Of a stretch of DNA of 64,000 bases, positions 3,257-33,361 are shown one piece after another (the stretch's first letter is position 1; every line of letters begins with the position of its first letter). A program made the translations under genes and the position numbers. Source of the DNA: Cryoendolithus antarcticus (Eukaryota; Ascomycota; Dothideomycetes; Cladosporiales; Cladosporiaceae); NCBI GenBank assembly GCA_002077065.1, contig NAJO01000028.1, forward strand, positions 62,001 through 126,000. The letters run 5' to 3'. The notes below the pieces were generated by a model, which worked only from the letters and a program-made list of their open reading frames with translations, was not told the origin of the DNA and made no database searches.

Positions 3257-6200
3257 TTACCTGAACAAATCCCTCAATTCCTCAATCTTCTTCTGACTCT
3301 CCTCTTTCTTGCTCAGCTTCTTCTCCATGCTCAGCTGCGCAAGCTTTACCTTCTTCTTTTGCAAGTCCTGAATGCTCTGCTCAATGCTCTTGCTCATGAC
3401 AAATCTCGTAATCTCCACATTCCTCTCCTGGCCCAAGCGGTGCACACGATCAATAGCCTGCTGCTCGACACCTGGGTTGAATTGAGGCTCCATCATGTAG
3501 ACCTTGTTGGCAGCTGTAAAGTTTAGACCCTGACCACCAGCGCGGATGGAGACGAGAAGGACAACGACCCGAGGATTGGTCTTGAAGACTCGCAGAACCT
3601 GGGCGCGCTTGGAGACAGAGAGGCTACCGTCGAGGCGGACGTAGCCGATGTCGCGATTGTACAGCGCGTGTTCGATAAGCTCGAGGTAGGAGGTCCACTC
3701 GGTGAACACCACGCTGCGGATGGGAGGCTCGCCAAACGGCAACTGCTCCGACTCGGCCCTGGACTTGTCGAGAGCGTCGAGCAGCGCGTTCACCTTGGTG
3801 TGAGGCCCGCTGTAGTTCTCCTCGTTCCATGTAACAACCTTGCCCTTCTTGCGGTTGTTGACGTGGTCGCGGAGGTATCCGGAGTAGCCACGGCGCGTGA
3901 GCTGGAAGAACTGGAATCGCACATAGGCTTCGCAAGATGGACAGTTGTGGTAGCCGTCTGTACGCAGCTGAGGTGCCACCTTACGCTTCAGCATCTCTCT
4001 GCAGTTGGGGCAGTAGAAGTGATAGCAGGGTGTCAAGCTTGCCATAACATCGTCCTCGTCGGGGTCGTCGTCCGACGATTCGGCATCGTCACTGTCCTGC
4101 TCTAGACGCTGCTCAGCACGGTTGTTCAAGATGTTCGCGCCACAATCGGCACACTGAGCCATCTCACTCTGCTGTGCCATGTGAAACATCTCGTATGCTT
4201 GCCGATCCGTGATGAATGTAGCTTCTTCGCCTTCCACTTCAGGCTCGTCGCCCAATTCGATCGCGTTGTGCTCGTCCATGCCTTCGAGGTCTTTGAGGTC
4301 TTCTGGGTTAAGCATCTCTTTACCATGACAGCAAAGCATTCGCATGCGTAGGATCGCCTTCAGGACGTGCGCGTAAGCTTTGCCGCGGAAACGCTGAGTG
4401 TTATTGTTGGTCATCGTGCGGATGTGGGCGTTCGACTGCCCAGCGAAGCGCTCGTAGAGTTTACGCTCATCTTCGCTCATCTCCAGCTCCACGAGGAATT
4501 CGTCCTTCTTGACAATGTCGATCTTGTCTTTTAGGCGACGGAGGGTGATACTGTCCACCAGAATACGTAGGTGCTGCAGCACATCAGTATTGCCAGTCCT
4601 GAATGGCGCCAAGATGTACTGAGCAAAAGCTCCAGGCTCATCAAATGGCTGGATACGCAAGAAGCGGATGAGAGCACCCAGGTCATCCAGCTTATTCTGC
4701 ACTGGAGTACCAGTGACTGCCCAGCGTCTCTGGGCGTTGATTGCACAAGCACCTTTGGCGACACTGGTGTTGCTGTTACGAATCATATGCGCCTCGTCCA
4801 GCACGACGCGGAACCACTGAATCGAGGCAAGTCCAGCTTTCTTGCGCAGGGTGTCCGCCATCTCTGTCGCAACAGTTCCATAGGTTGTAAGTACAATGTC
4901 GTACTGTGCCAGCACGTCCAGGTCTTGTATACGTCCAGTGCCGTGGTATGTATACACGCTGAGTGCGTCTTCGTGTATGTGAGATTGCAACTGATCGGAC
5001 CAGTTGGAAAGCACCGACTTAGGGCAGACGATGACTGTCGTCTTTGCGTTGCGCTGTACCGTTTCCATGTTCATTGGTGGATCCTCGTTGCCGAACGCTT
5101 CGGCAGCATCCACTGTAGCAGCAATAAGGGAGAGGATACTCAGAGTCTTACCCAGACCCATCATGTCAGCCAAGATGCCGCCGTACACAGGGTTGGGCTT
5201 ATCCGCGTTTCTCTGCCCAGTGATTACGTTATAGTAGGAGAGTCTGCCATTTGGCTCGATTCGCTCCTTCCACAACGTGTGGACGTCTTTGCTCATAGTC
5301 CTCTTGATCTCCTCATTCGCTGGCTCTTCATCCGCCTGCACAGGCTCACTGCTCTGTGTGGCGTCGTAACCCTCGTGGGCAGTCAAGAAGTGCAGTGCTT
5401 GCTTCTGATGCGGCATGAGCTCTGTCGCGACGATGCTCTTGTCCGCATCCTTTTCAGCAAGATCGTCGTTCTTCTGCATGTTTTCGAATAGCGCATTTGC
5501 ATCCTGGCGCATCTCCTCGGCTGTACGGGTGATTGCCGTAGTGGAAGCGCTGACGCGTGGTTTCGAGACACCGCCAATGCTCTTGATACGGACATCCGAC
5601 GGTACATGCGGGTTGTAGACCTCGACGCCGCTATCCACGCCCGTCATAGGGTTCGAGAGGAATAGATTCCGCTGCGAGAGGAATCTGCCCATGGAGTCGG
5701 CCTTGTTGCGGGGACAATACATGATGATTTGCACATTGATGACGTCCGACACAGACATCTTGGGTACTTCATCCGCCTTCCGCGGAGTCCTGCCGATGAA
5801 GATCTTGATGCGGAACCTGTTCAAGTTCTGAGCAGCAGGCTCGAGCAAGGAGCATAGAGCTGCAGCGGCTTGAGCAGTAATTCGAGCGAACCTTACCCCA
5901 GTCCTGTCCACCAAGTGGATGATCGAGTCCCTGGCACCGCCTTCGCGTTCGTATTTGCATCTCGTGGGAGGCCAAAAATCTTTGCCCAGTGTGCTCGACT
6001 CCGCGAAGGCCGGAATGCGAGTACGGTTGGCCTGACAGTGGAGCACACCCATGCAGACTTCGAAGTTGTAGTCCAGTCTGCGCTCGGTGCAGGACTCACA
6101 GACAGTCGCCTTCTCATCGGTAACCTCATTGCTGCATCCTTTCAGCTTACACAGCCTCTTAGAGCTGGTGATCTCAAGATCGTCGTCGTCGTCGTCAGCG

Positions 6201-22882: not shown

Positions 22883-23677
22883 ATGCCAGACAAAGACGCC
22901 TCCACTCCTCGCATATTCATCCTTCGCCATGGCGAGACAGAATGGTCAAAATCGGGTCAATATACGGGTAAAACTGATATGCCATTGACACCTCACGGCG
23001 AAGCTCAAGTCAAGGGCACTGCCCAACAAGTCTACGGCTTGGGCAAATTGATCGACCCAGCGAAAGTAGCCAAGATCTGGCTCTCGCCTAGGAAGCGGGC
23101 GATCAAGACTTACGAGCTATTGTCTGGACGAAATGATGGTTACGAGATCAGTGAGAGCTTGGCGGAGTGGGATTATGGGTCTGTAGCATAGATGAGGCAC
23201 TGTTTGACCCGACGAGCTTTACTAACAGGTGCTACGTAGTGACTATGAAGGTCGTCTGACCAAGGACATCCGAGCCCTTCGCAAAGACCGCGGCCTCGAC
23301 AAGGAGCGGGAGTGGGACATCTGGTCAGATGGCTGTGAAGGCGGCGAGTACGTATAGTCCATGCATTCCCTGGAGATCGTCCCTGATCATATTATCTCAG
23401 ATCGTCTGCCGAGGTCACGGCCAGAATCGACACTTTGCTGAAGGAGATCCGAACCTTTCACGCAAATCGTATGCACAGCAGCGAGCCGAAGGATATCATC
23501 CTGGTCGCACATGGCCACCTGACGAGAGCGTTCGCCAAGCGCTTTCTGGGCTATGAGTTGTCGTTCCCTCTGTCTTTGATGATGGAGCCTGGTGGGGTCG
23601 GCATACTCAGCTACCAGCACCACAATATTGATGAGCCTGCCCTACTGATGGGAATTGGATTTCCGCTGCAGGAGTGA
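22883..23677 (+). CDS. SHB17: Sedoheptulose-1,7-bisphosphatase, histidine phosphatase superfamily (Shb17-like)
   Basis: Three exons (22883-23178, 23240-23347, 23401-23677) give 226 residues. The phosphohistidine motif is RHGETEW, followed by KSGQYTGKTDMPLTPHGEAQ; the second catalytic histidine is in VAHGHLTRAFA; GDYEGRLTKDIRALRKDRGL, WDIWSDGCEGGE and the C-terminal SYQHHNIDEPALLM are close to yeast Shb17, which hydrolyses sedoheptulose-1,7-bisphosphate in riboneogenesis. It is shorter than yeast Shb17 (about 271 residues), mainly in the segment between the second histidine and the C-terminal motif. Intron 1 (61 bp) starts GTCTGT; intron 2 (53 bp) starts GTACGT. Both junctions were set by the conserved WDYGDYEG and GGES blocks. 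Confidence 0.87.
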
Positions 23678-23861
23678 TTTCGATGTTGTGGATTGCGTCG
23701 CGTCGCCGACAGCTTATCGGGCCTACAAGCTGATAGAGACTGAGGCAATCGTGGATGTAGATAGATATGTATAGGGCCGCTATCCTCCGCTATGCCGCGA
23801 CCTTCATGCCACTGTCTGCCGTTTCGTCGTAAGATCTCTCGCTTCGAGATTATGCTCTGTC

Positions 23862-24504
23862 TCAGCGAGGCTCGGGTATCTCCTCATAGTCGTCCTCAGG
23901 AACCAACACGAAGGCAGCGGCTAGTATCCCAGTAGCGTCAATTAGTAGTGCGATCCAGCTGACGGTGCAGAGAATCCATGATTTGTCCAATTCCCAGCCA
24001 ACGAAGAAGCGATTGTCGTGGTCGTAGAGATATGCCTACACAAACATGTCAACGAAGCTCTGGCGACTTCAACGCACTTCCACGTAAACTCACCACAATA
24101 GCCATCGCAGTAAGCTGCGCCACTGCGATCAGCGCCAGCAAGGGCGACAGCACCTTCCAGCCCACTTCTCGCGCGCCACGACCACCCGCCAACACCACGA
24201 TGTAACACACGATCACAGCCAGCTCAATCACCACCGTAAAGTTCATGAGGAACGCGCTCGACCTCCACATGCTACAGAACGACTTGTTCGAGTTGACCTC
24301 GCATTCCTCGTCGCTTGGAAAAGGCGTACACTTCCCCGTGATGCTCGAACATCGGTTTTGTAGACCCAGTGTTACTCGTATCGGGTCGGTGTCGGTGGGA
24401 GAGGAGTAGGATATCCAGTTCGGGAGGGCGATGCTGGCGATCGTACAGCACATGGCAGCCACGAAGATCCATGCGCTTATACCGTAGACTATACGACGAG
24501 TCAT
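23862..24504 (-). CDS. Claudin/SUR7-like four-transmembrane protein
   Basis: Two exons (24504-24094, 24035-23862) encode 194 residues with four hydrophobic spans: IVYGISAWIFVAAMCCTIAS, NFTVVIELAVIVCYIVVLAG, SPLLALIAVAQLTAMAIVAY and ILCTVSWIALLIDATGILAA. The first extracellular loop carries NWISYSS and several cysteines (NRCSSITGKC, CEVNSNKSFC), a claudin/SUR7-like arrangement in fungal plasma-membrane proteins. The C-terminus is acidic (PEDDYEEIPEPR). The intron 24093-24036 (58 bp) joins MAIV to AYLYDHDNRFFVGWELD. An upstream in-frame ATG at 24732 would add 76 low-complexity residues; the start at 24504 directly before the first span is preferred. Function is unknown; a role in membrane organisation or calcium signalling is only a family-based guess. 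Confidence 0.72.
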
Positions 24505-24805
24505 CGTGGCGGTCGCTGCGCAGTCTCGGAAGGGGGTTGTAGGCCTTTGAGCGACGAAGCAAGGAAGACGTAGGGACTGAGGCAGCACCTTGAACAGCAG
24601 GAAGCTGCCTCGCTTAGACGAGGCTTGGCACTCGTTATCGTCTCGAACCGGCTCCACTACAGAGTTGCCGTCATAGTCGAGACGAATAGCACACGAAGGA
24701 TGGTGGTCCGAAGTATGTCCCTCCTTTGCCAATCACGTGCAGGCATAAGTAGACAGACGTACTTCTTTTTGCGTTCCTTGAATCGTTGCTGCGTTACACT
24801 TGATC
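24505..24805. other. Intergenic, divergent promoter region
   Basis: About 300 bp between the claudin-like gene and the PLP-dependent dehydratase gene. It contains an in-frame upstream ATG (24732) of the claudin-like gene. Nothing else seen. Confidence 0.4.
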
Positions 24806-26111
24806 ATGGCTGAAGTCTCGCAATGCCCTCCCTTAACGCGCCAGTCCGTCCAGGCTGCTCACAAGAGAATCAAGCAATACATCCATCGCACGCCGGTAGT
24901 CACTTGCGAGACAATCAACACGCTTGCCTCTACGCCGCAGTCGAAGCGGTGTCCCTCAAGCGGACCAAATTTGATGTCAGAGCCTGCTCCTCATGATCAG
25001 CACCCCGAAGAGAAAGCGACCAAATACAGTGCTGAGCCGACTGTGCGTTTGTTCTTCAAGTGTGAGAATCAGCAAAGGATCGGCGCGTTCAAGGCGAGAG
25101 GGGCATTTCATGCATTGGGTAGGCTGATCGGCGAGCAAGGCATTGATGAGGTAAGGCGGAAAGGCGTGGTAACCCATAGCTCAGGTACTCGATCCTTGAC
25201 ATTAATGATCTTACCTCCAAGCTGACGAAATTCAAGGCAACCATGCACAAGCACTAGCTCTAGCAGCACGAACACATGAAGTCCCTGCACATATTGTAAT
25301 GCCCACGATATCGACGCCATCCAAGATCTCTGGCACACAGGCTCAGGGCGCCAATGTGATATTCTCCGGTTCAACAAGTGACGAGCGGGAAGCCGTTGTC
25401 GTCGATGTCATCAAGAAGACCGGTGCAACTCTAGTGCCACCGTACGACCACCCAGATATCATCCTAGGGCAAGGCACGCAAGCCCTAGAGCTCGAGCAGC
25501 AAGTGGTCGATCTCCTTGCCGAGGACGCCAGCCTCGGAGTACCTGGCAAGCACCGACTAGACGCGGTGATTGCACCTATTGGCGGCGGCGGCATGCTGTC
25601 TGGCATATGCACCGCTCTTCAAGGCACCGGCATCAAGGTCTTCGGCGCAGAGCCTAATTTCGAGGGAGCCAATGATGCTGAGATTGGACTGAAGCAAAAC
25701 AAACGGATCGAGAAAGTGAAAACTTTGACCATCGCTGATGGTCTACGTACTCCAGTAGGTGAGATTCCTTGGTCGATCGTGACAGACAAGAGCAAGTTAG
25801 CCGGCATCTACAGTGTCAACGAGGACCAAATCAAGGCTGCACTGCGATTGGCTATGGAGCGGGCTAAGCTGTTCATCGAACCTTCAGCTGCTGTGCCTCT
25901 GGCTGTCATGCTATACAATGAGGACTTTCGGGAGCTCGTGCAGCGTGATGCTGGTCCTGGAGGCTGGAACGTGGGTATCATCCTCTCTGGCGGCAACACC
26001 ACCGTCGACGCTATCGCGGCTATCTTCGCACGGCCTGCCAAGGTGGAGCAGCGAGCACAGGCGACAGTCGGTATGAATGGAGAGAAGGTAGCTGAGAATG
26101 TAGCTGGATGA
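24806..26111 (+). CDS. PLP-dependent serine/threonine dehydratase or serine racemase
   Basis: Two exons (24806-25184, 25237-26111) encode 417 residues of the fold-type II PLP family. The lysine that binds PLP is in GAFKARGAFHALG; splicing across the 52-bp intron (25185-25236, GCTGAC branch site) joins THSSG to NHAQALALAA, the asparagine loop; the glycine-rich phosphate loop is PIGGGGMLSG; LSGGNTTVDAI is near the C-terminus. There is no ACT regulatory domain, which argues against biosynthetic Ilv1 and for the catabolic threonine dehydratase, 3-hydroxyaspartate dehydratase (yeast Sry1) or serine racemase group. A 45-residue insertion rich in P, S and K sits before the lysine motif. Substrate cannot be fixed from sequence. 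Confidence 0.85.
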
Positions 26112-26439
26112 GGCTATTGGACCTGCTTTGAATGTCCACTGGCCGAGAGATCCAGCATTCTACCGAGCCGTTTCTCGCTAGATCCGTACCGATTGGATTA
26201 CTGACTGCCGTCGGGAATGCGCACGCGATGGGCCGATCACAGAATACATTCCTCAAGTTGGCGGAAGTCCTCTCTTCCGTGCTGCATCTCTTTGCCGTAG
26301 CAACGAACACTGTTTTGGCCGCGGCCCGAATTGTTGAGTATACTTTGCCGACGATGCCGAGTAAGTGACACTGGGAGGCCGAGTAGACGCACAAATCTCC
26401 ATCTTGCATCCATACATTCGTTCCGTCTTCTTCTGCAAG
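26112..26439. other. Intergenic
   Basis: The 328 bp separate the dehydratase stop from the start of the collagen-like gene and should hold the promoter of the latter. No site recognised. Confidence 0.4.
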
Positions 26440-28918
26440 ATGCGTCTCGCAATCTCACATCACTTTGCTGCCATCGTGTCCAGTCTACTTCTTTCTCTGC
26501 CGATGCCGGTCCGAGCGCAGTCGGCATGCCGAATGGTCAGCTCAATGCAGCAGCAAGTCGTGTACGAGCAGGCTGTGTCAATTGATACACTCGTCACCTC
26601 GAACACGACATTCTTCCCGCTCGCGCAAGCAGGCGTGACAGTCACAAACGCGCCTACTAGCATCGACGGCATCACAACGTTACAATGGACCTCAGCGCCT
26701 GCATTGATCACCATGCAGAGCAGTATACTACCGACGAGCGCAACGCAGGTATCTCGATATTCGCCGTCACCTACGATGAATCCCGACGACGTCACTTTCG
26801 TGCTGCTCGTGCGGAATGATAAGGATCATCAGAAGAGGCAGAGCGGGAACTTTTACGTGTCGGGCAACGGGACAATCACGCAAGACTGCACCAACACTCC
26901 AGTCTATACGACCCGCAACGGCGTCTTGACTGCCACAGTCGGAGGGACAGTCTATACTTACTCGACTTCGCCGGGCGTCACCTTTCAGCAGTTCGTTCCG
27001 AGCACGATCCCGGGATCGATCACGACGACGTTCAGTATCCAGCGGGATGGGACATTGAGTTGGCTCAACGACACTTTCTTCAACGGCCAAGCCAATTTCT
27101 GCGCTTTGCGAAATGGGACTGTGTACTCTATATTTGTTGACGGTGGGGCACCGAGTGGATGTCTCTTTATTCAGCTGTCGCTGTTCTCGGTGGCATCGTG
27201 TCAGGCGGCAAGCTACAATACGGTGCCGGGTCCTTCAGATAAGTTCCTTATACCTGCGGTAATTATTGTGGACTTTACTGATTCGTATCCTACGTCCGAT
27301 CGGGCCGACGGGGTGAGTGTTTTGGCGCAACAGCGGTGTCGCTTCGGATGACTGACATCGCTGTTAGAGCTACCGGCAGCCAAGGGCTTCAGGGTACCCA
27401 AGGTATCCAAGGTATCCAAGGAATACAAGGTATTCAAGGTATTCAAGGCCAACAAGGCATCACGGTATGTGTAAACACGCTGGACATCCTGGAAGCACCA
27501 TCTTCACGGTACTAACACAAGTTATAGGGAGCCACCGGGTATGGTCCTAACATGATTTCCGGTGTCTAGCGCATCCCCTAACGGCTTCACCAGGACCGCA
27601 GGCCCAACAGGAACCCAAGGCATTGCAGGAAGCACTGGGTAATTATGTCCAATTATTGTGTCGTGGAAACCTAGCTCACTGGCGTTTCAGGCCGCAGGGA
27701 CCAACCGTAGGCCGCGTCTTTGTCGCGGGTACTTGGCGTCAGAGCTAACTCAAGGAAGGGAACACAAGGTAGTCAAGGGCCGAGTGGGCCAAGTGGCGCA
27801 ATGGGGTATGGTACTTGGACAATGCGCGAAGTGCGGAATATTCGCTAATTGCGTGCACAGTACAGCCGGACCATCAGGGTATGGCGTTATCGTTACAAGT
27901 CGTGTAACGTATATGCTAACCACTGCACAGACCATCAGGCCCAGCTGTTCGTGCCGCTTTCCACGGACTCCTTTCTCGTAGAGACTTACACAGCGTAGGG
28001 ACAACAAGGTTCTACAGGCATACAGGGGCCTTCTGTCAGTATCTCCACCGTCCAGGCTGTCAATATCAGCCGCTGACAGCACACAAGGGACCGCAAGGCG
28101 TGCAAGGAAGCCCCGGGGCGACGGGATCGACGGGGTAAGCTGTCATTCACGAGGTATCCATGGAGGCGTACTCCTGACCATTTGCTTGCATAGGCCAACT
28201 GGATCTGCTGATAAGTCTAACAACACCTCCCAAACATTGGTCGGCTACTGACACTGTTGGTCTACGCCCCTCTGGGCCCTCGGTTCGTCTACCTTTGTAT
28301 GGATCTGCTATACTTTCAACGCTTACACCGCGCAGGGACCACAGGGTAGTACGGGTGTCCAGGGGCCTTCTGGGTATGGATTTCGCGTTTCTCGAGAATG
28401 GCATGACGCTGACTAGACACTACTTAGGCCAAGTGGGCCGTCAGATAAGTCTCGGCATATCCCGGGGGCTGTCGATCCTGACTAATATGTTCCTTCCACG
28501 CGCTTCGGGTGTTCCAGGTCCAACAGCCACTCCGGCCACGTTGTATTCGTATCTCGGCTGCTATGTACAGACTGGTCAACCCTCAACGAACACTGGTCGG
28601 GCGCTAGCGGCCTACCAAAACACATACACGACACTCGGCGACAGCAAATGCAGCGCCACATGTGCATTGGGACAGTACATGTTCTACGGCAGTGTGAATA
28701 ATGGCACGGCTGCGGTGGACTGTTGGTGCGGAAACAGTATTACCTACGTGACTAGTAGCGTTGGGGTACTCGGAGTAGGAACCGTAGCCGGTGCGGCAGG
28801 TGAGCAGAATTGCTATCAGTGCAACGGTGGCGCTACGCCGGGCGGGATTCTAGGACCCTGTGGAAACTTCTCAGTCCAGACGATATCGATCTTCTCGAGA
28901 ACCTTCCTGAAAGGCTGA
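26440..28918 (+). CDS. Secreted collagen-like (Gly-X-Y) protein with C-terminal WSC domain, 16 exons
   Basis: Predicted exons: 26440-27238, 27294-27312, 27368-27464, 27528-27538, 27594-27638, 27691-27706, 27759-27805, 27861-27878, 27931-27946, 27999-28034, 28088-28134, 28194-28210, 28266-28282, 28336-28373, 28428-28444, 28500-28918; 552 residues. The start MRLAISHHFAAIVSSLLLSL is a signal peptide. A beta-rich secreted domain follows (GNFYVSGNGTITQDC; SITTTFSIQRDGTLSW), resembling a fungal domain I recall as DUF7908. Then come 53 uninterrupted Gly-X-Y triplets, rich in GPS, GIQ and GST. The end is a WSC-type domain (LYSYLGCYVQTG; DSKCSATC; DCWCGN; NCYQC) that may bind glycans. Introns 1, 12 and 15 are AT-AC and 55 nt each; the others are GT-AG. 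A cell-surface or matrix role is inferred. First and last exons are solid; mini-exons rest on repeat register. Confidence 0.75.
27239..27293 (+). other. Predicted AT-AC intron 1 of the collagen-like gene
   Basis: The intron begins ATAAGTTCC and ends ATCCTAC, with TTACTGAT as likely branch region, and is 55 nt. It splits a glycine codon in phase 1: GGT CCT TCA G before, GT CCG ATC GGG after. Removing it turns the otherwise out-of-register sequence into GPS-GPI-GPT-GAT and fixes the phase of the next, canonical GTGAGT...TTAG intron. The segment is also open if unspliced, so retention would give a non-collagenous product. Confidence 0.6.
28211..28265 (+). other. Predicted AT-AC intron 12 of the collagen-like gene
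   Basis: The intron starts ATAAGTCTAAC and ends TTGGTCTAC, 55 nt, with CTACTGAC as branch region. It splits a glycine codon in phase 1 between GGATCTGCTG and GCCCCTCTGGGC. No GT-AG alternative keeps the Gly-X-Y frame here. Confidence 0.6.
28445..28499 (+). other. Predicted AT-AC intron 15 of the collagen-like gene
   Basis: The intron starts ATAAGTCTCGG and ends TTCCTTCCAC, 55 nt, with CCTGACTAAT as branch region. It splits a glycine codon in phase 1 and joins GGGCCGTCAG to GCGCTTCGGGTGTTCCAGGT, leading directly into the WSC exon. A GT-AG alternative (GTGGGC at 28434 to CAG at 28515) also keeps the WSC frame but loses collagen triplets. Confidence 0.55.
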
Positions 28919-29562
28919 GCAACCTGCTGCACTTCAAATGTGTATACTCTAGTCATAGCTGCTTTCTGCCTGATCGTAGCGTCTAGTCGACCGCTGCTAT
29001 ACCTGCGACAGTGTCAACGACAAATATGGCACTCTGTTCTGGTCGAGGCGAGGCTTCGCCATCACGATTGGTTCGGTAGCAGCAATTGAGACTTCCAAAC
29101 TCTTGGAAACGCGAACATGGATGGTAATTGAATCTTGGGCATTCGAGCAAGGTGTACATACCATCGAACTATCACAGTGAACCGATAACCGCTTATGTAC
29201 CTATACCACCTCCCACTTCCCACCGGCTGCAGTCCGGCAATGTCTTGTTTCCGGATTGACCCTTGGACAGCTTGCCGAAGCTTCGGGATCACGACTCGTA
29301 ACGTGTCTCCACCTCCACCTCGTTGCATTGCAGTAGTCGACATCCAAGATAAGCCGAGATCTATGTAGTAATACCTATCTCTAGCTGGGCGGGGAATGTC
29401 GCGTGCCGAAGATGGCGGTCGCGTGGATTCTCTCAACAGCACGTCGTACGGCACCTTTGATGCTGTATGCTCCCTTACCTGTCAATCACTCGCCATCGCT
29501 GACTTTCACAGGCAGATATAGATGAGAGGCAGGACAATCAGATCTCGTCTTCAGCAGCCAAC
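28919..29562. other. Intergenic
   Basis: The 644 bp between the collagen-like gene and the sugar transporter gene contain no recognisable coding frame; they should include the transporter promoter. Confidence 0.45.
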
Positions 29563-31228
29563 ATGTCTACCCCAGGGATGGAAGATACAGAGCGCGACGT
29601 GAAGAACAAGATTGTCGTCGGAGCGATTGGCGGCGACGATGCACGACTGGCCACAGATCGCGAACATGACATGCCATTTCTTGAAGCGATCAGGCTCTAC
29701 CCTACGGCTGTAGGATGGTCCATCTTTTTCAGTCTCGGAGTGGTAAGTACATCAGCTTCAACCCGTCGACGCTCGCACTAATGCCGCGGCAGGTTATGAC
29801 AGCATTTGATCCCCAATTACTGGGAAACTTGTACGCTACTCCTGCCTTCCAGCGCGACTTCGGCTACAAATTCAACGATAGCTTTATCATATCTGCGGCC
29901 TGGCAAACCGGTCTGGGCATGGGCAATCCGATCGGTCAAGTCGTGGGCGCGTTCTTCGCAGCGTACCCGATGGAGTGGTATGGCCGCAAGAAGACGTTCG
30001 GCGTATGTGTGATCCTCACTGCTGCGTTCATCTTCATCCAATTCTTCGCGCGGTCCTTGCCTGTGCTGTTGGTGGGCGAGCTTCTCGGAGGACTAGTACT
30101 TGGCACCTACGTCGTGGTCGCGCCAGCCTACGCCTCAGAAGTTTGTCCAATCCCACTGAGAGGCGTGTTGACTTCTTGGGTCAATCTCAGCTTCGTGATG
30201 GGACAGCTCATCGCGAACGGGGTCATAGCCGGGACATCCAAGCTGGATAACCATTGGGCTTACAGTGCGCCATTTGCTGCCCAGTGGGTGTGGCCCGTTA
30301 TTATACTCATAGGCTGGCCTTTTGCACCCGAGTCACCATGGTGAGTTCTGAGCTTCCACGTCATTCACCATAGACCACGCTGATCACTTCCAGGTGGCTG
30401 GTCCGCAAGGAACGCTTCGCAGATGCAGAGCACTCCCTCCGCCGACTCGCGTCCGCGACCGTCGATGTCAAGCCCACGCTTGCGATGATCATCGAAACAG
30501 ACAGGCTTGAGCGCGAGATGAAGACAGGCACTACGTACCTCGATTGCTTCAAGCCGACCAATCTGCATCGTACCGAAATCAGCGTCGGCGTCTACACCAT
30601 TCAGGTCCTCTCAGGCATCTACCTTGTGGGGTATGCAGTCTACTTCTTCGAGCTTGCCGGCCTGCCGGTGGAAAAGGCGTTCAGTATGGGTGTAGGCTTT
30701 CTTGCTCTCGGCTTCGTCGGAACATGCTGCTCCTGGGTTCTGCTGATACATTACGGACGACGGCGCATCTATAACACTGGCTTAGCAGTACTTATCACTC
30801 TGCTGCTGATCATCGGGATTCTCGACTGTCTGCCGTCATACGAGTCCAACCACGGCATTGCGTGGGCGCAAGCCAGCTTGATGCTGATCTGGAACTTCGT
30901 GTATGATCTCAGTATCGGTCCAGTCTGCTTCGTGCTGCTCTGCGAGTGTAGTGCCACACGTGTACGCAGTAAGACGATCGCGCTGGCGACGGCTGTGCAG
31001 GCAGTAGTGGCCATTGCGATGACGGTGGCAATACCTTACATGTTCAATCCGGATGAGGGCAACGTGCGGGGGAAGATAGGGTTCTTCTTTGGAGGCTTGA
31101 GCATGGTTAGCCTCGTGTGGGCTTACTTCCGAGTACCAGAGACGAAGGGCAGGACGTATGAGGAACTTGATATCATGTTCTCGAAGGGCTTGAAGACTAG
31201 GGAGTTCGCTCAGTATTCAGTCGAGTAG
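29563..31228 (+). CDS. MFS sugar transporter (maltose/alpha-glucoside permease type)
   Basis: Three exons (29563-29742, 29793-30340, 30394-31228) give 520 residues, normal for fungal 12-TM sugar porters. Family signatures: GMGNPIGQVVGAFFAAYPME followed by WYGRKKTF (the loop 2-3 motif), ASEVCPIPLRGVLTSWVN, PFAPESPWWLVRKER spanning intron 2, and near the end FRVPETKGRTYEELDIMF, the PETKG motif. The PESPWWLVR form is typical of the yeast MAL/AGT-like permease branch, so an alpha-glucoside or other disaccharide is a reasonable substrate guess. Introns of 50 and 53 bp have GTAAGT and GTGAGT donors. Acts at the plasma membrane by proton symport (known for the family). Confidence 0.9.
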
Positions 31229-31546
31229 CGAAACGCACAAAGCTATGTAACTCACGTTCTTGCATGGCTGCTTGACGGCTTCACATCGATCTGCGCTCTG
31301 TTGGGCATTCGAGTTTCCTTACGCGAAGCTCGTCTTGTGCCTATCGTCTTGCAACTTAGATTGCCAAGGTTTTCCGGATTGCCCGAATGAGGTCGCCCGC
31401 CTCTCTCCAACTCCGATCTCCTTTCCTCAACTCAATTTCATGGCCCTCACTTCTGCCTCTTGTAGAGCACCATGCATGCTGGTCTTGTCAGGCGCATCGA
31501 CTCAATATTAGCATGGCGAGATGCAAGTCCCTGAAGCTTGCTCAAC
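31229..31546. other. Intergenic
   Basis: The 318 bp between the transporter stop and the deacetylase start are T/C-rich in the last half. No gene recognised. Confidence 0.4.
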
Positions 31547-32329
31547 ATGCCGCTCTTCTTGCGCCTTCCTCGGCCCTTCTCTCGACGTAAAGCAAAACGG
31601 ACCCGGATGGCTATTCAAATCGCAATCGCGGTGATTTGTCTACTCGTCGTCCTGCCAGCGTACATCATATATAAGCCTCCGCGCTTCGTGATATCATACT
31701 TTCAGGAGAGGTTCCCTTCAGTTCTCTTCCACGTTCAGACGACACGTAAGATCATTGCGTTGACCATCGATGATGCGCCTTCAGCTCATACGTTGGAGAT
31801 CCTGGAGGTGTTGAAGAAACACAACGCGACTGCGACATTCTTCGTCATTGGAGATCAGGTCAATGGTCGCGAGGGCATTCTGACGAACATTCTGCAGCAT
31901 GGCCATGAGCTTGGCAACCATGCCACGCACGACGAGCCATCAATATCTCTGCCGTCCGATGTCTTAGCTGAGCAGATCTCCTCCGTCGACTCGCTGCTGA
32001 GCGATGCATACATCACCGCTAATGTCACCCGACAATCTTTCTGGTTTCGTCCCGGCTCCGGCGTCTTCAGTCAGCGTGTTCTTGACATCGCCGAGAAAGC
32101 AGACTACAAGACCGTACTGGGTAGCATCTACCCTCACGACCCTTTTATCCGGTACTGGCGAGTCAACGCGTGGCATGTGCTTAGCATGGCTCGCCCAGGT
32201 GCTGTGATCATTTGTCATGACCGCAGGTCGTGGACCGCCCCGATGCTGAAGCGAGTGTTGACGGAGCTCCACAATCGTGGCTTCGAGGTAGTGTCGGTGA
32301 GTAAGCTGCTAGAGGCAACGAAAGGCTGA
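31547..32329 (+). CDS. Polysaccharide (chitin-type) deacetylase, NodB domain, membrane-anchored
   Basis: The intronless 260-residue protein starts at the ATG at 31547. It has a basic N-terminus and one membrane span (MAIQIAIAVICLLVVLPAYI), so it is likely a type II membrane or signal-anchor protein. The NodB motifs are present: TIDDAPSAHT (catalytic and metal-binding aspartates), LGNHATHDEP (metal-binding histidines), FRPGSGVFS (motif 3) and GAVIICHDRRS (late histidine motif). Such enzymes remove N- or O-acetyl groups from chitin, chito-oligosaccharides or related glycans. It lacks chitin-binding modules. It follows the collagen-WSC gene and the sugar transporter on the same strand, a possible surface-related neighbourhood. 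Confidence 0.88.
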   Translation: MPLFLRLPRPFSRRKAKRTRMAIQIAIAVICLLVVLPAYIIYKPPRFVISYFQERFPSVLFHVQTTRKIIALTIDDAPSAHTLEILEVLKKHNATATFFVIGDQVNGREGILTNILQHGHELGNHATHDEPSISLPSDVLAEQISSVDSLLSDAYITANVTRQSFWFRPGSGVFSQRVLDIAEKADYKTVLGSIYPHDPFIRYWRVNAWHVLSMARPGAVIICHDRRSWTAPMLKRVLTELHNRGFEVVSVSKLLEATKG

Positions 32330-33361
32330 ACGTATATTTCATTGGATCGTCGCCATCAGCGCGGCGAATCGACAGATTCCCGACTTGCGGTGTCACAACA
32401 CTACAGTAACAACTCGCAGCACACGGATCACGAGCTCGCTATCGACTTACACTGCCCTCGCGCAGCGTTCGTTGTGCTGTGCATGTTGCATACGGCGCAT
32501 CACCCGCACGTCGTATCACTCGCATGGCGCATCACTCGAACAGAGCATCACTCACACGGCGCACCACTCACACGGCGCACCACTCACACGGCGCACCACT
32601 CACACGGCGTATCACTTGCACGATGCACTGCTACCACGACGCATCGGAACGATATTGACCGCACAACACCAACGGAACCACCGTTCCACTTCAGTAATTA
32701 CGCAGATCACGCGATTTGAATCGTATTGTATCCGAATTTTGCTGCAGATCTCGCGATGATTAAGCTTGAGTCAGCGGATAGAGCTACACTCATTCACGCA
32801 ACGAAGACGGCGGAGAGGAATTGATCTTCGCAGCACTCTTTAGCGAGTGGTCGTTGTCGAAGCGCTTAAAGGCGCACACGTGGTAGTGCGCTTCGCACTC
32901 ACGCCAAACGCATTCATCAAGGTGTGTCTCGAAGAGTGTCGGATGGCGCCAGGCACGCGTCACGGAGAGTCAGTCTCGGGGATAAACAACGAGGTCTAAG
33001 CTCGACTGACCGACGATGACAAGCGCCATTTCTTTGAAGGCACCGACATTGCTTTGGACAGCGGCAGAATCATATACTTCGTCGAGCAATTCTCGGTTTT
33101 CGCTGAAGACGAGGGCCGCAAGCGCCAATACGATGTCAACGGCGCCAATCATCGACATAACCAACATCTACGAAAAGGATTTCGAAGAATTGAAGGCTCG
33201 GTTGAACAACGTACCAGACACTAAGCGTCGCGCGATGAAGAGACTGAAGGTTCGCGATCCGCACTAATCCCTGAACACAACCAGCACTGGTTCCTGCAAG
33301 GGACGCCCAAGAGAGGACTCGCGAACAGAGAGGAAGCCGGGGAAGCAGCCGCGGTGTAACA
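32330..33361. other. Gene-poor stretch with tandem repeat and coding-like fragment
   Basis: This region contains the 16-bp tandem repeat described separately and, at about 33012-33224, a protein-like plus-strand frame (DDDKRHFFEGTDIALDSGRI and on) that ends in TAA without a recognisable start. The latter is probably part of the decayed coding relic that follows. Confidence 0.4.
32501..32628. repeat. 16-bp tandem repeat, eight units
   Basis: Eight units of 16 bp follow each other in strict register. Units 4-6 (32549-32596) are identical, CACTCACACGGCGCAC; unit 7 differs at the end (GTAT), and units 1-3 and 8 are diverged. A further degenerate unit is visible on each side. It lies 170 bp after the deacetylase stop. 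There is no spacer structure, so it is a minisatellite and not a CRISPR. Confidence 0.85.

What the first reader, a model, noticed from the sequence alone, without database searches (positions are those of the whole stretch)
27239..28499. Three AT-AC introns, each exactly 55 nt, in one collagen-like gene
At 27239-27293, 28211-28265 and 28445-28499 the coding frame is interrupted by sequences that start ATAAGT and end AC (CCTAC, TCTAC, CCAC). Each follows a G and splits a glycine codon in phase 1. Removing exactly these three segments, together with twelve ordinary GT-AG introns, gives 53 uninterrupted Gly-X-Y triplets; with GT-AG choices the register breaks. The first one also solves an otherwise incompatible phase at the strong GTGAGT donor at 27313. 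The branch regions look U2-type (CTGAC, CTGACTAAT), not the U12 TCCTTRAC. AT-AC introns are very rare in ascomycetes (known), and three in one gene would be remarkable.
Basis: partly seen in the sequence, partly recalled or inferred. Interest (0 to 1): 0.88.

Follow-up and report, generated by a model that had tools for sequence, protein, structure and literature searches.

The report
Repeated AT-AC introns in fungal collagen-like gene
A collagen-like gene of what is probably an Antarctic rock fungus appears to contain three introns with the rare AT...AC ends instead of the usual GT...AG; its duplicate gene and several related fungi seem to carry such introns too, which matters because they are very rare in this group of fungi and gene finders can miss them.

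Summary
Excising them with twelve GT-AG introns gives 53 unbroken Gly-X-Y triplets; the best-scoring GT-AG-only model has 7 breaks. AT-AC ranks first of 255 terminal-dinucleotide pairs tried, with and without splice-site weights. Independent support: (1) a syntenic duplicate gene in the same genome needs three AT-AC introns of its own for 54 unbroken triplets; one is orthologous, two are different, with ATAGGT donors. (2) Nine of 87 scorable homologous proteins read DKS, DKY, DK or DES where Gly is due, as an unspliced G|ATAAGT or G|ATGAGT would. (3) In the two modelled collagen parts all six AT-AC introns lie one base into a Gly codon and none of the other 24 does. Donor and branch sites are U2-like; searches for U12 and U6atac genes found none. 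Best explanation: U2-spliceosome AT-AC (type II) introns, inherited from an old founder and multiplied as the repeat grew by duplicating exon-intron units. Splicing itself is inferred: no RNA was available. The genome is very probably Cryoendolithus antarcticus, whose public model of the duplicate gene reads through the first such intron.

The parts
26440..28918 (+). Collagen-like gene, 16 exons and 15 introns, 552 aa: DUF7908 domain, 53 Gly-X-Y triplets, WSC-like C-terminal domain
   Evidence: Spliced frame open from ATG 26440 to stop 28918; Pfam DUF7908 E 1.3e-35, Collagen 3.9e-22, WSC 1e-5, the last just below its cut-off
27239..27293 (+). AT-AC intron 1 (55 nt, ATAAGT...CTGAT...CCTAC), phase 1 in the Gly codon of triplet 2
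   Evidence: orthologous AT-AC intron of 55 nt in the duplicate gene
28211..28265 (+). AT-AC intron 2 (55 nt, ATAAGT...CTGAC...TCTAC), phase 1
28445..28499 (+). AT-AC intron 3 (55 nt, ATAAGT...CTGACTAAT...TCCAC), phase 1; the last intron of the duplicate's collagen part is GT-AG, phase 2
27313..27367 (+). GT-AG intron (GTGAGT); its counterpart in the duplicate gene is modelled as GC-AG
27465..27527 (+). GT-AG intron, just before a Gly codon
27539..27593 (+). GT-AG intron
27639..27690 (+). GT-AG intron
27707..27758 (+). GT-AG intron, just before a Gly codon
27806..27860 (+). GT-AG intron
27879..27930 (+). GT-AG intron
27947..27998 (+). GT-AG intron, just before a Gly codon
28035..28087 (+). GT-AG intron, just before a Gly codon
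28135..28193 (+). GT-AG intron
28283..28335 (+). GT-AG intron, just before a Gly codon
28374..28427 (+). GT-AG intron

Best explanation
The three segments are real spliceosomal introns of the AT-AC type II (U2-dependent) kind. The major spliceosome recognises the U2-type donor (ATAAGT; ATAGGT in the duplicate) and a CTGAC/CTGAT branch site. The A at the first and C at the last intron position replace the usual G and G together, so that their contact in the second step is kept (inferred, from recalled knowledge). Removing them keeps the Gly-X-Y register. An old founder, the AT-AC intron at the start of the collagen domain, has been inherited, and the others arose when the repeat domain grew by duplicating exon-intron units. 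The AT-AC reading is strongly supported by sequence; use of the U2 spliceosome and the duplication history are inferred.
For: AT-AC is first of 255 dinucleotide pairs in the window gene, with 53 triplets and 0 breaks. The duplicate gene on G000:C57 gives 54 triplets and 0 breaks with three AT-AC introns of 55, 51 and 50 nt, and AT-AC is first of 254 pairs. Intron 1 is 78.2% identical between the duplicates (12 differences in 55), with none in its donor, branch or acceptor motif. Substitutions between the duplicates favour third codon positions: 83 of 103 over 724 of the 799 nt of exon 1, 12 of 18 in exon 3, 61 of 91 over 333 nt of the last exon; exons 2 and 5 have only 2 of 3 and 3 of 6, exon 4 none. 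Nine of 87 scorable homologs (of 105 found) read DKS, DKY, DK or DES at the Gly slot. In P0003 the letters allow a YAC acceptor at exactly 55 nt with six Gly in a row, counting the split one; the next best acceptors give five (YTG) and four (YAG, YCG). Donors match TAAGT at 4-5 of 5 positions and all six introns have CTRAY. U12 and U6atac searches gave no hit, U6 gave two above cut-off. In the two collagen parts all 30 modelled introns lie at a Gly codon; AT-AC only at offset 1 (6 of 6), the others never (0 of 24). Same-offset introns are more alike inside than label shuffles give (4-7 of 2000 as high with all seven same-site pairs dropped, AT-AC alone 24-33 of 2000).
Against: No RNA or cDNA was available. 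The exons are short and repetitive, and the models were chosen by the register itself. The two later AT-AC introns of the window gene show no clear interior likeness to each other, several of the most alike non-orthologous pairs are of different offset, and AT-AC likeness weakens to 47-95 of 2000 when orthologous sites are counted once, so copying from one founder is only modestly supported. In homologs P0013 and P0046 an AG or CG acceptor 9 nt further on fits as well as AC, and the homolog evidence is protein letters, not DNA. In other relatives GT donors at offset 1 seem to exist (GK or GE read-through in 12 of 87, my count from the list), so offset 1 is not bound to AT-AC in the family. The snRNA searches scored only part of their candidates (42 of 415 for U12, 46 of 1314 for U6atac).
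Confidence: 0.83

Rival explanations
1. Only GT-AG introns are spliced; the collagen part is interrupted or the gene is decayed, and the AT...AC segments are exon sequence or are retained.
For: GT-AG makes up nearly all fungal introns; the public model of the duplicate gene (P0092, 294 aa) reads straight through the first AT-AC segment.
Against: GT-AG alone leaves 7 of 44 triplets broken, and 4 of 38 in the duplicate, 2 of 44 with GC-AG added. Segments 2 and 3 hold in-frame stops and all three are 55 nt, which shifts the frame. Third-position bias suggests that both copies are kept by selection. The public model has no Gly-X-Y run.
Confidence: 0.08
2. They are U12-type introns removed by a minor spliceosome.
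For: AT-AC ends are common among U12 introns.
Against: Donors match RTATCCTT at only 3-5 of 8 positions and the best TCCTTRAY match is 5-6 of 8. No U12 or U6atac hit at E 1 or below, though only part of the candidates was scored; U11 and U4atac were not searched. Ascomycota are reported to lack minor introns (PMC10639083 and PMC2846911, passages read).
Confidence: 0.02
3. The AT-AC introns arose by separate GT-AG to AT-AC changes in a lineage whose spliceosome tolerates them, rather than by copying one founder.
For: The last intron of the collagen part is AT-AC in the window gene and GT-AG in the duplicate. AT donors fall in separate parts of the family tree (4 changes needed). Donors differ (ATAAGT, ATAGGT, and ATGAGT inferred in P0065).
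Against: The strict offset-1 position and the modest interior likeness favour copying. Two coordinated changes are needed for each switch. No U1 with a matching 5' end (ACTTATC) was seen in 12 U1-like loci.
Confidence: 0.2

Closest known systems
AT-AC type II (U2-dependent) introns, such as intron 21 of human SCN4A (PMC2831892, passages read)
   Same: AT...AC ends, with a U2-like donor and branch site
   Different: Three in one gene and six in a duplicate pair, all at the same place in a repeat unit, in an ascomycete; not shown by transcript
AT-AC introns of species thought to lack the minor spliceosome: C. elegans (PMC3033335, passages read) and the 'other AT-AC' column for Monosiga (PMC2846911, passages read)
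   Same: AT-AC introns without a known minor spliceosome
   Different: Those were found from transcript data across genomes; here they are concentrated in one gene family and inferred from frame
Introner-like elements of Dothideomycetes (recalled, not read)
   Same: Intron multiplication in this fungal class
   Different: Here the spread is inside one repeat gene, the interiors are hardly alike, and copies elsewhere in the genome were not searched for

Membership tests
AT-AC type II (U2-type) introns | AT at the 5' end and AC at the 3' end of the excised segment | tested here: met
   First of 255 and of 254 dinucleotide pairs in two genes; inferred from frame, not from RNA
AT-AC type II (U2-type) introns | U2-type donor after position +1 and U2-type branch site | tested here: met
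   TAAGT 5 of 5 in four introns and 4 of 5 in two; CTRAY with its A 10-18 nt before the last base in all six; 9 of 12 GT-AG introns of the window gene have a YTRAY match
AT-AC type II (U2-type) introns | Splicing depends on the major spliceosome | not testable with these tools
   No RNA or genetics
U12-type introns | RTATCCTT donor and TCCTTRAY branch site | tested here: not met
   3-5 of 8 and 5-6 of 8 positions
U12-type introns | U12 and U6atac snRNA genes in the genome | tested here: inconclusive
   0 hits each, but only 42 of 415 and 46 of 1314 candidates were scored; U6 gave 2 hits above cut-off, while even U1 stayed below its cut-off
U12-type introns | U11 and U4atac snRNA genes in the genome | not tested
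   Searches not run
Introner-like elements | Near-identical intron copies at many genes | tested here: inconclusive
   Within the two genes interiors are only weakly alike apart from orthologous pairs; other genes not tested
Collagen-like proteins | Long uninterrupted Gly-X-Y run | tested here: met
   53 triplets; Pfam Collagen E 3.9e-22

The most novel reading that the evidence does not exclude
In this lineage of Dothideomycetes the major spliceosome treats AT-AC as an ordinary splice-site subtype: AT-AC introns arise, spread and swap with GT-AG and GC-AG at matching positions, without any minor spliceosome, and standard annotation has hidden them.
Probability: 0.2. Interest if true: 0.82.

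Novelty: new member of a known kind. Interest (0 to 1): 0.64.

Why it matters
One published view is that U2-type AT-AC introns come from U12 introns and are then trapped, because the first and last base must change together (PMC2831892, passages read). Here they sit in a fungal phylum reported to lack U12 introns, in several copies within one fast-changing gene, and beside GT-AG and GC-AG introns at matching places in a duplicate gene. The Gly-X-Y register acts as a built-in frame check that exposes such introns without RNA. That makes the gene family a natural test of how introns move between GT-AG and AT-AC, and a warning that gene models of such genes may be wrong.

Tried and rejected
Models without AT-AC. 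A first run ended in the wrong register: it gave 5 breaks in 43 triplets for GT-AG, 3 in 40 for GT-AG plus GC-AG, and with AT-AC chose GT-AG sites at 28355 and 28433 in place of the third AT-AC intron. With the end corrected, GT-AG alone gives 7 breaks in 44. GT-AG plus GC-AG was tried only as one of the 255 pairs and is not among its 15 printed.

Variant U1 snRNA fitting ATAAGT: 12 U1-like loci, all below Rfam's cut-off (best 63.9 of 69.5 bits; 41 of 915 candidates scored), 7 with the usual ATACTTACCTT, none with ACTTATC in the match and its flanks.

Other collagen genes in the genome: six PF01391 hits, all below cut-off. Two are this gene and its duplicate. The four others (three places; L031 and L033 overlap) are short runs that look like simple repeats. 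The search is weak for short exons, so other collagen genes are not excluded.

A coding-potential survey of the 64-kb window for other AT-AC introns found 0, but had no power, since GT-AG itself did not stand out (one search stopped on a script error after printing the synteny result). A genome-wide survey was not possible. The Rfam scan of the window found nothing at gathering scores. A homolog search with the C-terminal part gave 3 proteins; in P0107 the letters before the last exon (R at the Gly slot after another R) suit a phase 2 AG acceptor, as in the duplicate gene (my reading, no script).

Paper searches. I saw listings (titles and starts of abstracts, not all papers that matched), and passages of five papers. 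No listed title or abstract start speaks of several AT-AC introns in one fungal gene.

Full report
What is there. The window is G000:C71:62001-126000 of a 46.97-Mb, 149-contig assembly. The genome is very probably that of Cryoendolithus antarcticus (Dothideomycetes, Cladosporiaceae; an Antarctic rock fungus, recalled): protein P0092, named B0A48_07726 of that species, lies on a contig of 983,114 bases, exactly the length of G000:C57, and its letters agree by eye with the C57 duplicate of our gene. The gene at 26440-28918 encodes a 552-aa protein with a DUF7908 domain, 53 Gly-X-Y triplets and a WSC-like domain that scores just under Pfam's cut-off.

Test of the claim. I wrote a dynamic-programming model that keeps the reading frame, rewards Gly in the first slot of each triplet and allows introns of chosen terminal dinucleotides. 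GT-AG alone scores -36.5 with 7 breaks in 44 triplets. GT-AG plus AT-AC scores 80.2 with 53 triplets and no break, and chooses exactly the three reported segments. All 255 pairs other than GT-AG were tried as the second kind; AT-AC was first and the next best, AT-GG, reached 63.4. With all splice-site weights removed AT-AC was still first (16 against 6). The pattern GATAAGTN{38,52}YACG hits the window three times, all here, against 0.45 expected; ATAAGT alone is not enriched.

The duplicate gene. The genome holds a second copy on C57, inside a stretch syntenic with the window (84.7% identical over 22977-27660, 88.1% over 29222-32373). With GT-AG and GC-AG alone its best model has 2 breaks in 44 triplets; adding AT-AC gives 54 triplets and no break, and AT-AC is first of 254 pairs (also first in the flat test). 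It has three AT-AC introns. The first is the partner of our intron 1: both 55 nt, 78.2% identical, with no difference in ATAAGT, the CTGAT branch site or CCTAC. The other two (ATAGGT...CCTAC, 51 nt; ATAGGT...CTATAC, 50 nt) have no clear partner, because the middle of the collagen part cannot be aligned between the copies. The partner of the GTGAGT intron is modelled as GC-AG; the flat test used a fourth AT-AC intron there instead, so that one site is ambiguous. Substitutions favour third codon positions in the three larger exons compared (83 of 103, 12 of 18, 61 of 91), so both copies look functional.

Relatives. Two searches gave 105 homologous protein clusters (in one search only the 7998 candidates sharing most words were scored); many look like single-exon predictions that read through the first intron. 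I could anchor the start of the Gly-X-Y run in 87; 18 were dropped for want of the anchor, among them P0092, this genome's own duplicate, which also reads D-K-F. In 10 of 87 the first lost Gly is an Asp, and in nine of these it is followed by K or E: DKS, DKY, DK or DES, the read-through of G|ATAAGT or G|ATGAGT. They are clusters, not counted species, and some are close kin. For P0003 the letters allow a YAC acceptor at exactly 55 nt with six Gly in a row, against five for YTG and four for YAG and YCG; for P0013 and P0046 AC at 49 nt and AG or CG at 58 nt fit equally well; the other six are too short to test. On a quick tree of 89 rows the AT label needs 4 changes against 10.5 on average for shuffled labels, and the AT rows lie in three separate places. 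I had no DNA for these relatives.

A rule in the positions. The 30 modelled introns of the two collagen parts all lie at a Gly codon: 11 just before it, 13 after its second base, 6 after its first base. The six at offset 1 are exactly the six AT-AC introns. If all were independent the chance of that split would be 1.7e-6; counting orthologous sites once leaves 24 introns, 5 of them AT-AC, and 2.4e-5; copying within the gene would weaken it further. Inside the introns, pairs of the same offset are more alike than label shuffles give (4-7 of 2000 with seven same-site pairs dropped; 6-7 of 2000 with orthologous sites counted once). AT-AC pairs alone reach 24-33 and 47-95 of 2000, and the offset-0 class shows nothing (the first version had kept one orthologous pair). 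The simplest reading is that the introns belong to lineages copied with their exons as the repeat grew, AT-AC being one of them. Against a strict rule: in 12 of 87 relatives the read-through is GK or GE, as a GT donor at offset 1 would give (my count).

How it would work. The donors fit U1 except at the first base, the branch sites fit U2, and the U12 motifs do not fit. U12 and U6atac searches were empty, with U6 as a positive control, but only part of the candidates was scored. Seven of 12 U1-like loci have the usual 5' end and none has a compensating change. So the major spliceosome most likely does the work. That a first A can pair in function with a last C is recalled knowledge; PMC2831892 (passages) names SCN4A intron 21 as an AT-AC intron that needs the major spliceosome, and describes such introns as trapped by the tight link between first and last base.

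What is known. PMC7072748 (passages) treats AT-AC as a minor non-canonical class in fungi. PMC10639083 and PMC2846911 (passages) find no convincing minor introns in Ascomycota. Three searches aimed at AT-AC introns in fungi listed no title or abstract start on several AT-AC introns in one fungal gene, in a library that lacks most subscription journals.

Verdict. Ordinary in kind, unusual in number and placing. I put 0.83 on these being U2-type AT-AC introns; the copying history is less sure. A genome-wide count and a transcript are what is missing.

Noticed in passing
window 22977-32373 and G000:C57:722000-731500 (L015): The window stretch has a syntenic second copy at 85-88% DNA identity, suggesting a large duplication or a hybrid/duplicated genome; the middle of the collagen repeat cannot be aligned between the copies.
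   Followed up: partly
L024, L025 (U1-like loci on C46 and C73): Two U1-like loci share a changed 5' end (CATCACAGCTT in place of ATACTTACCTT) with an otherwise U1-like body; possible variant U1 genes or pseudogenes. L023 has also lost the usual 5' end.
   Followed up: no
P0092 (public model B0A48_07726): The public model of the duplicate gene reads through the first AT-AC intron, then reads collagen sequence out of frame and ends before the other two AT-AC introns, so it has no Gly-X-Y domain.
   Followed up: yes
P0002, P0015, P0023, P0025, P0040: Several public models of this DUF7908-collagen family (Cladosporium, Saxophila, Friedmanniomyces, Elasticomyces, Hortaea) lose the Gly-X-Y register partway and look mis-annotated; others, such as P0020, P0031 and P0032 with 78-90 triplets, are unbroken.
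   Followed up: partly
L015 reverse strand 4347-4401: GC-AG intron (GCGAGT) modelled where the window copy has GTGAGT: a GT/GC difference between duplicate genes.
   Followed up: partly
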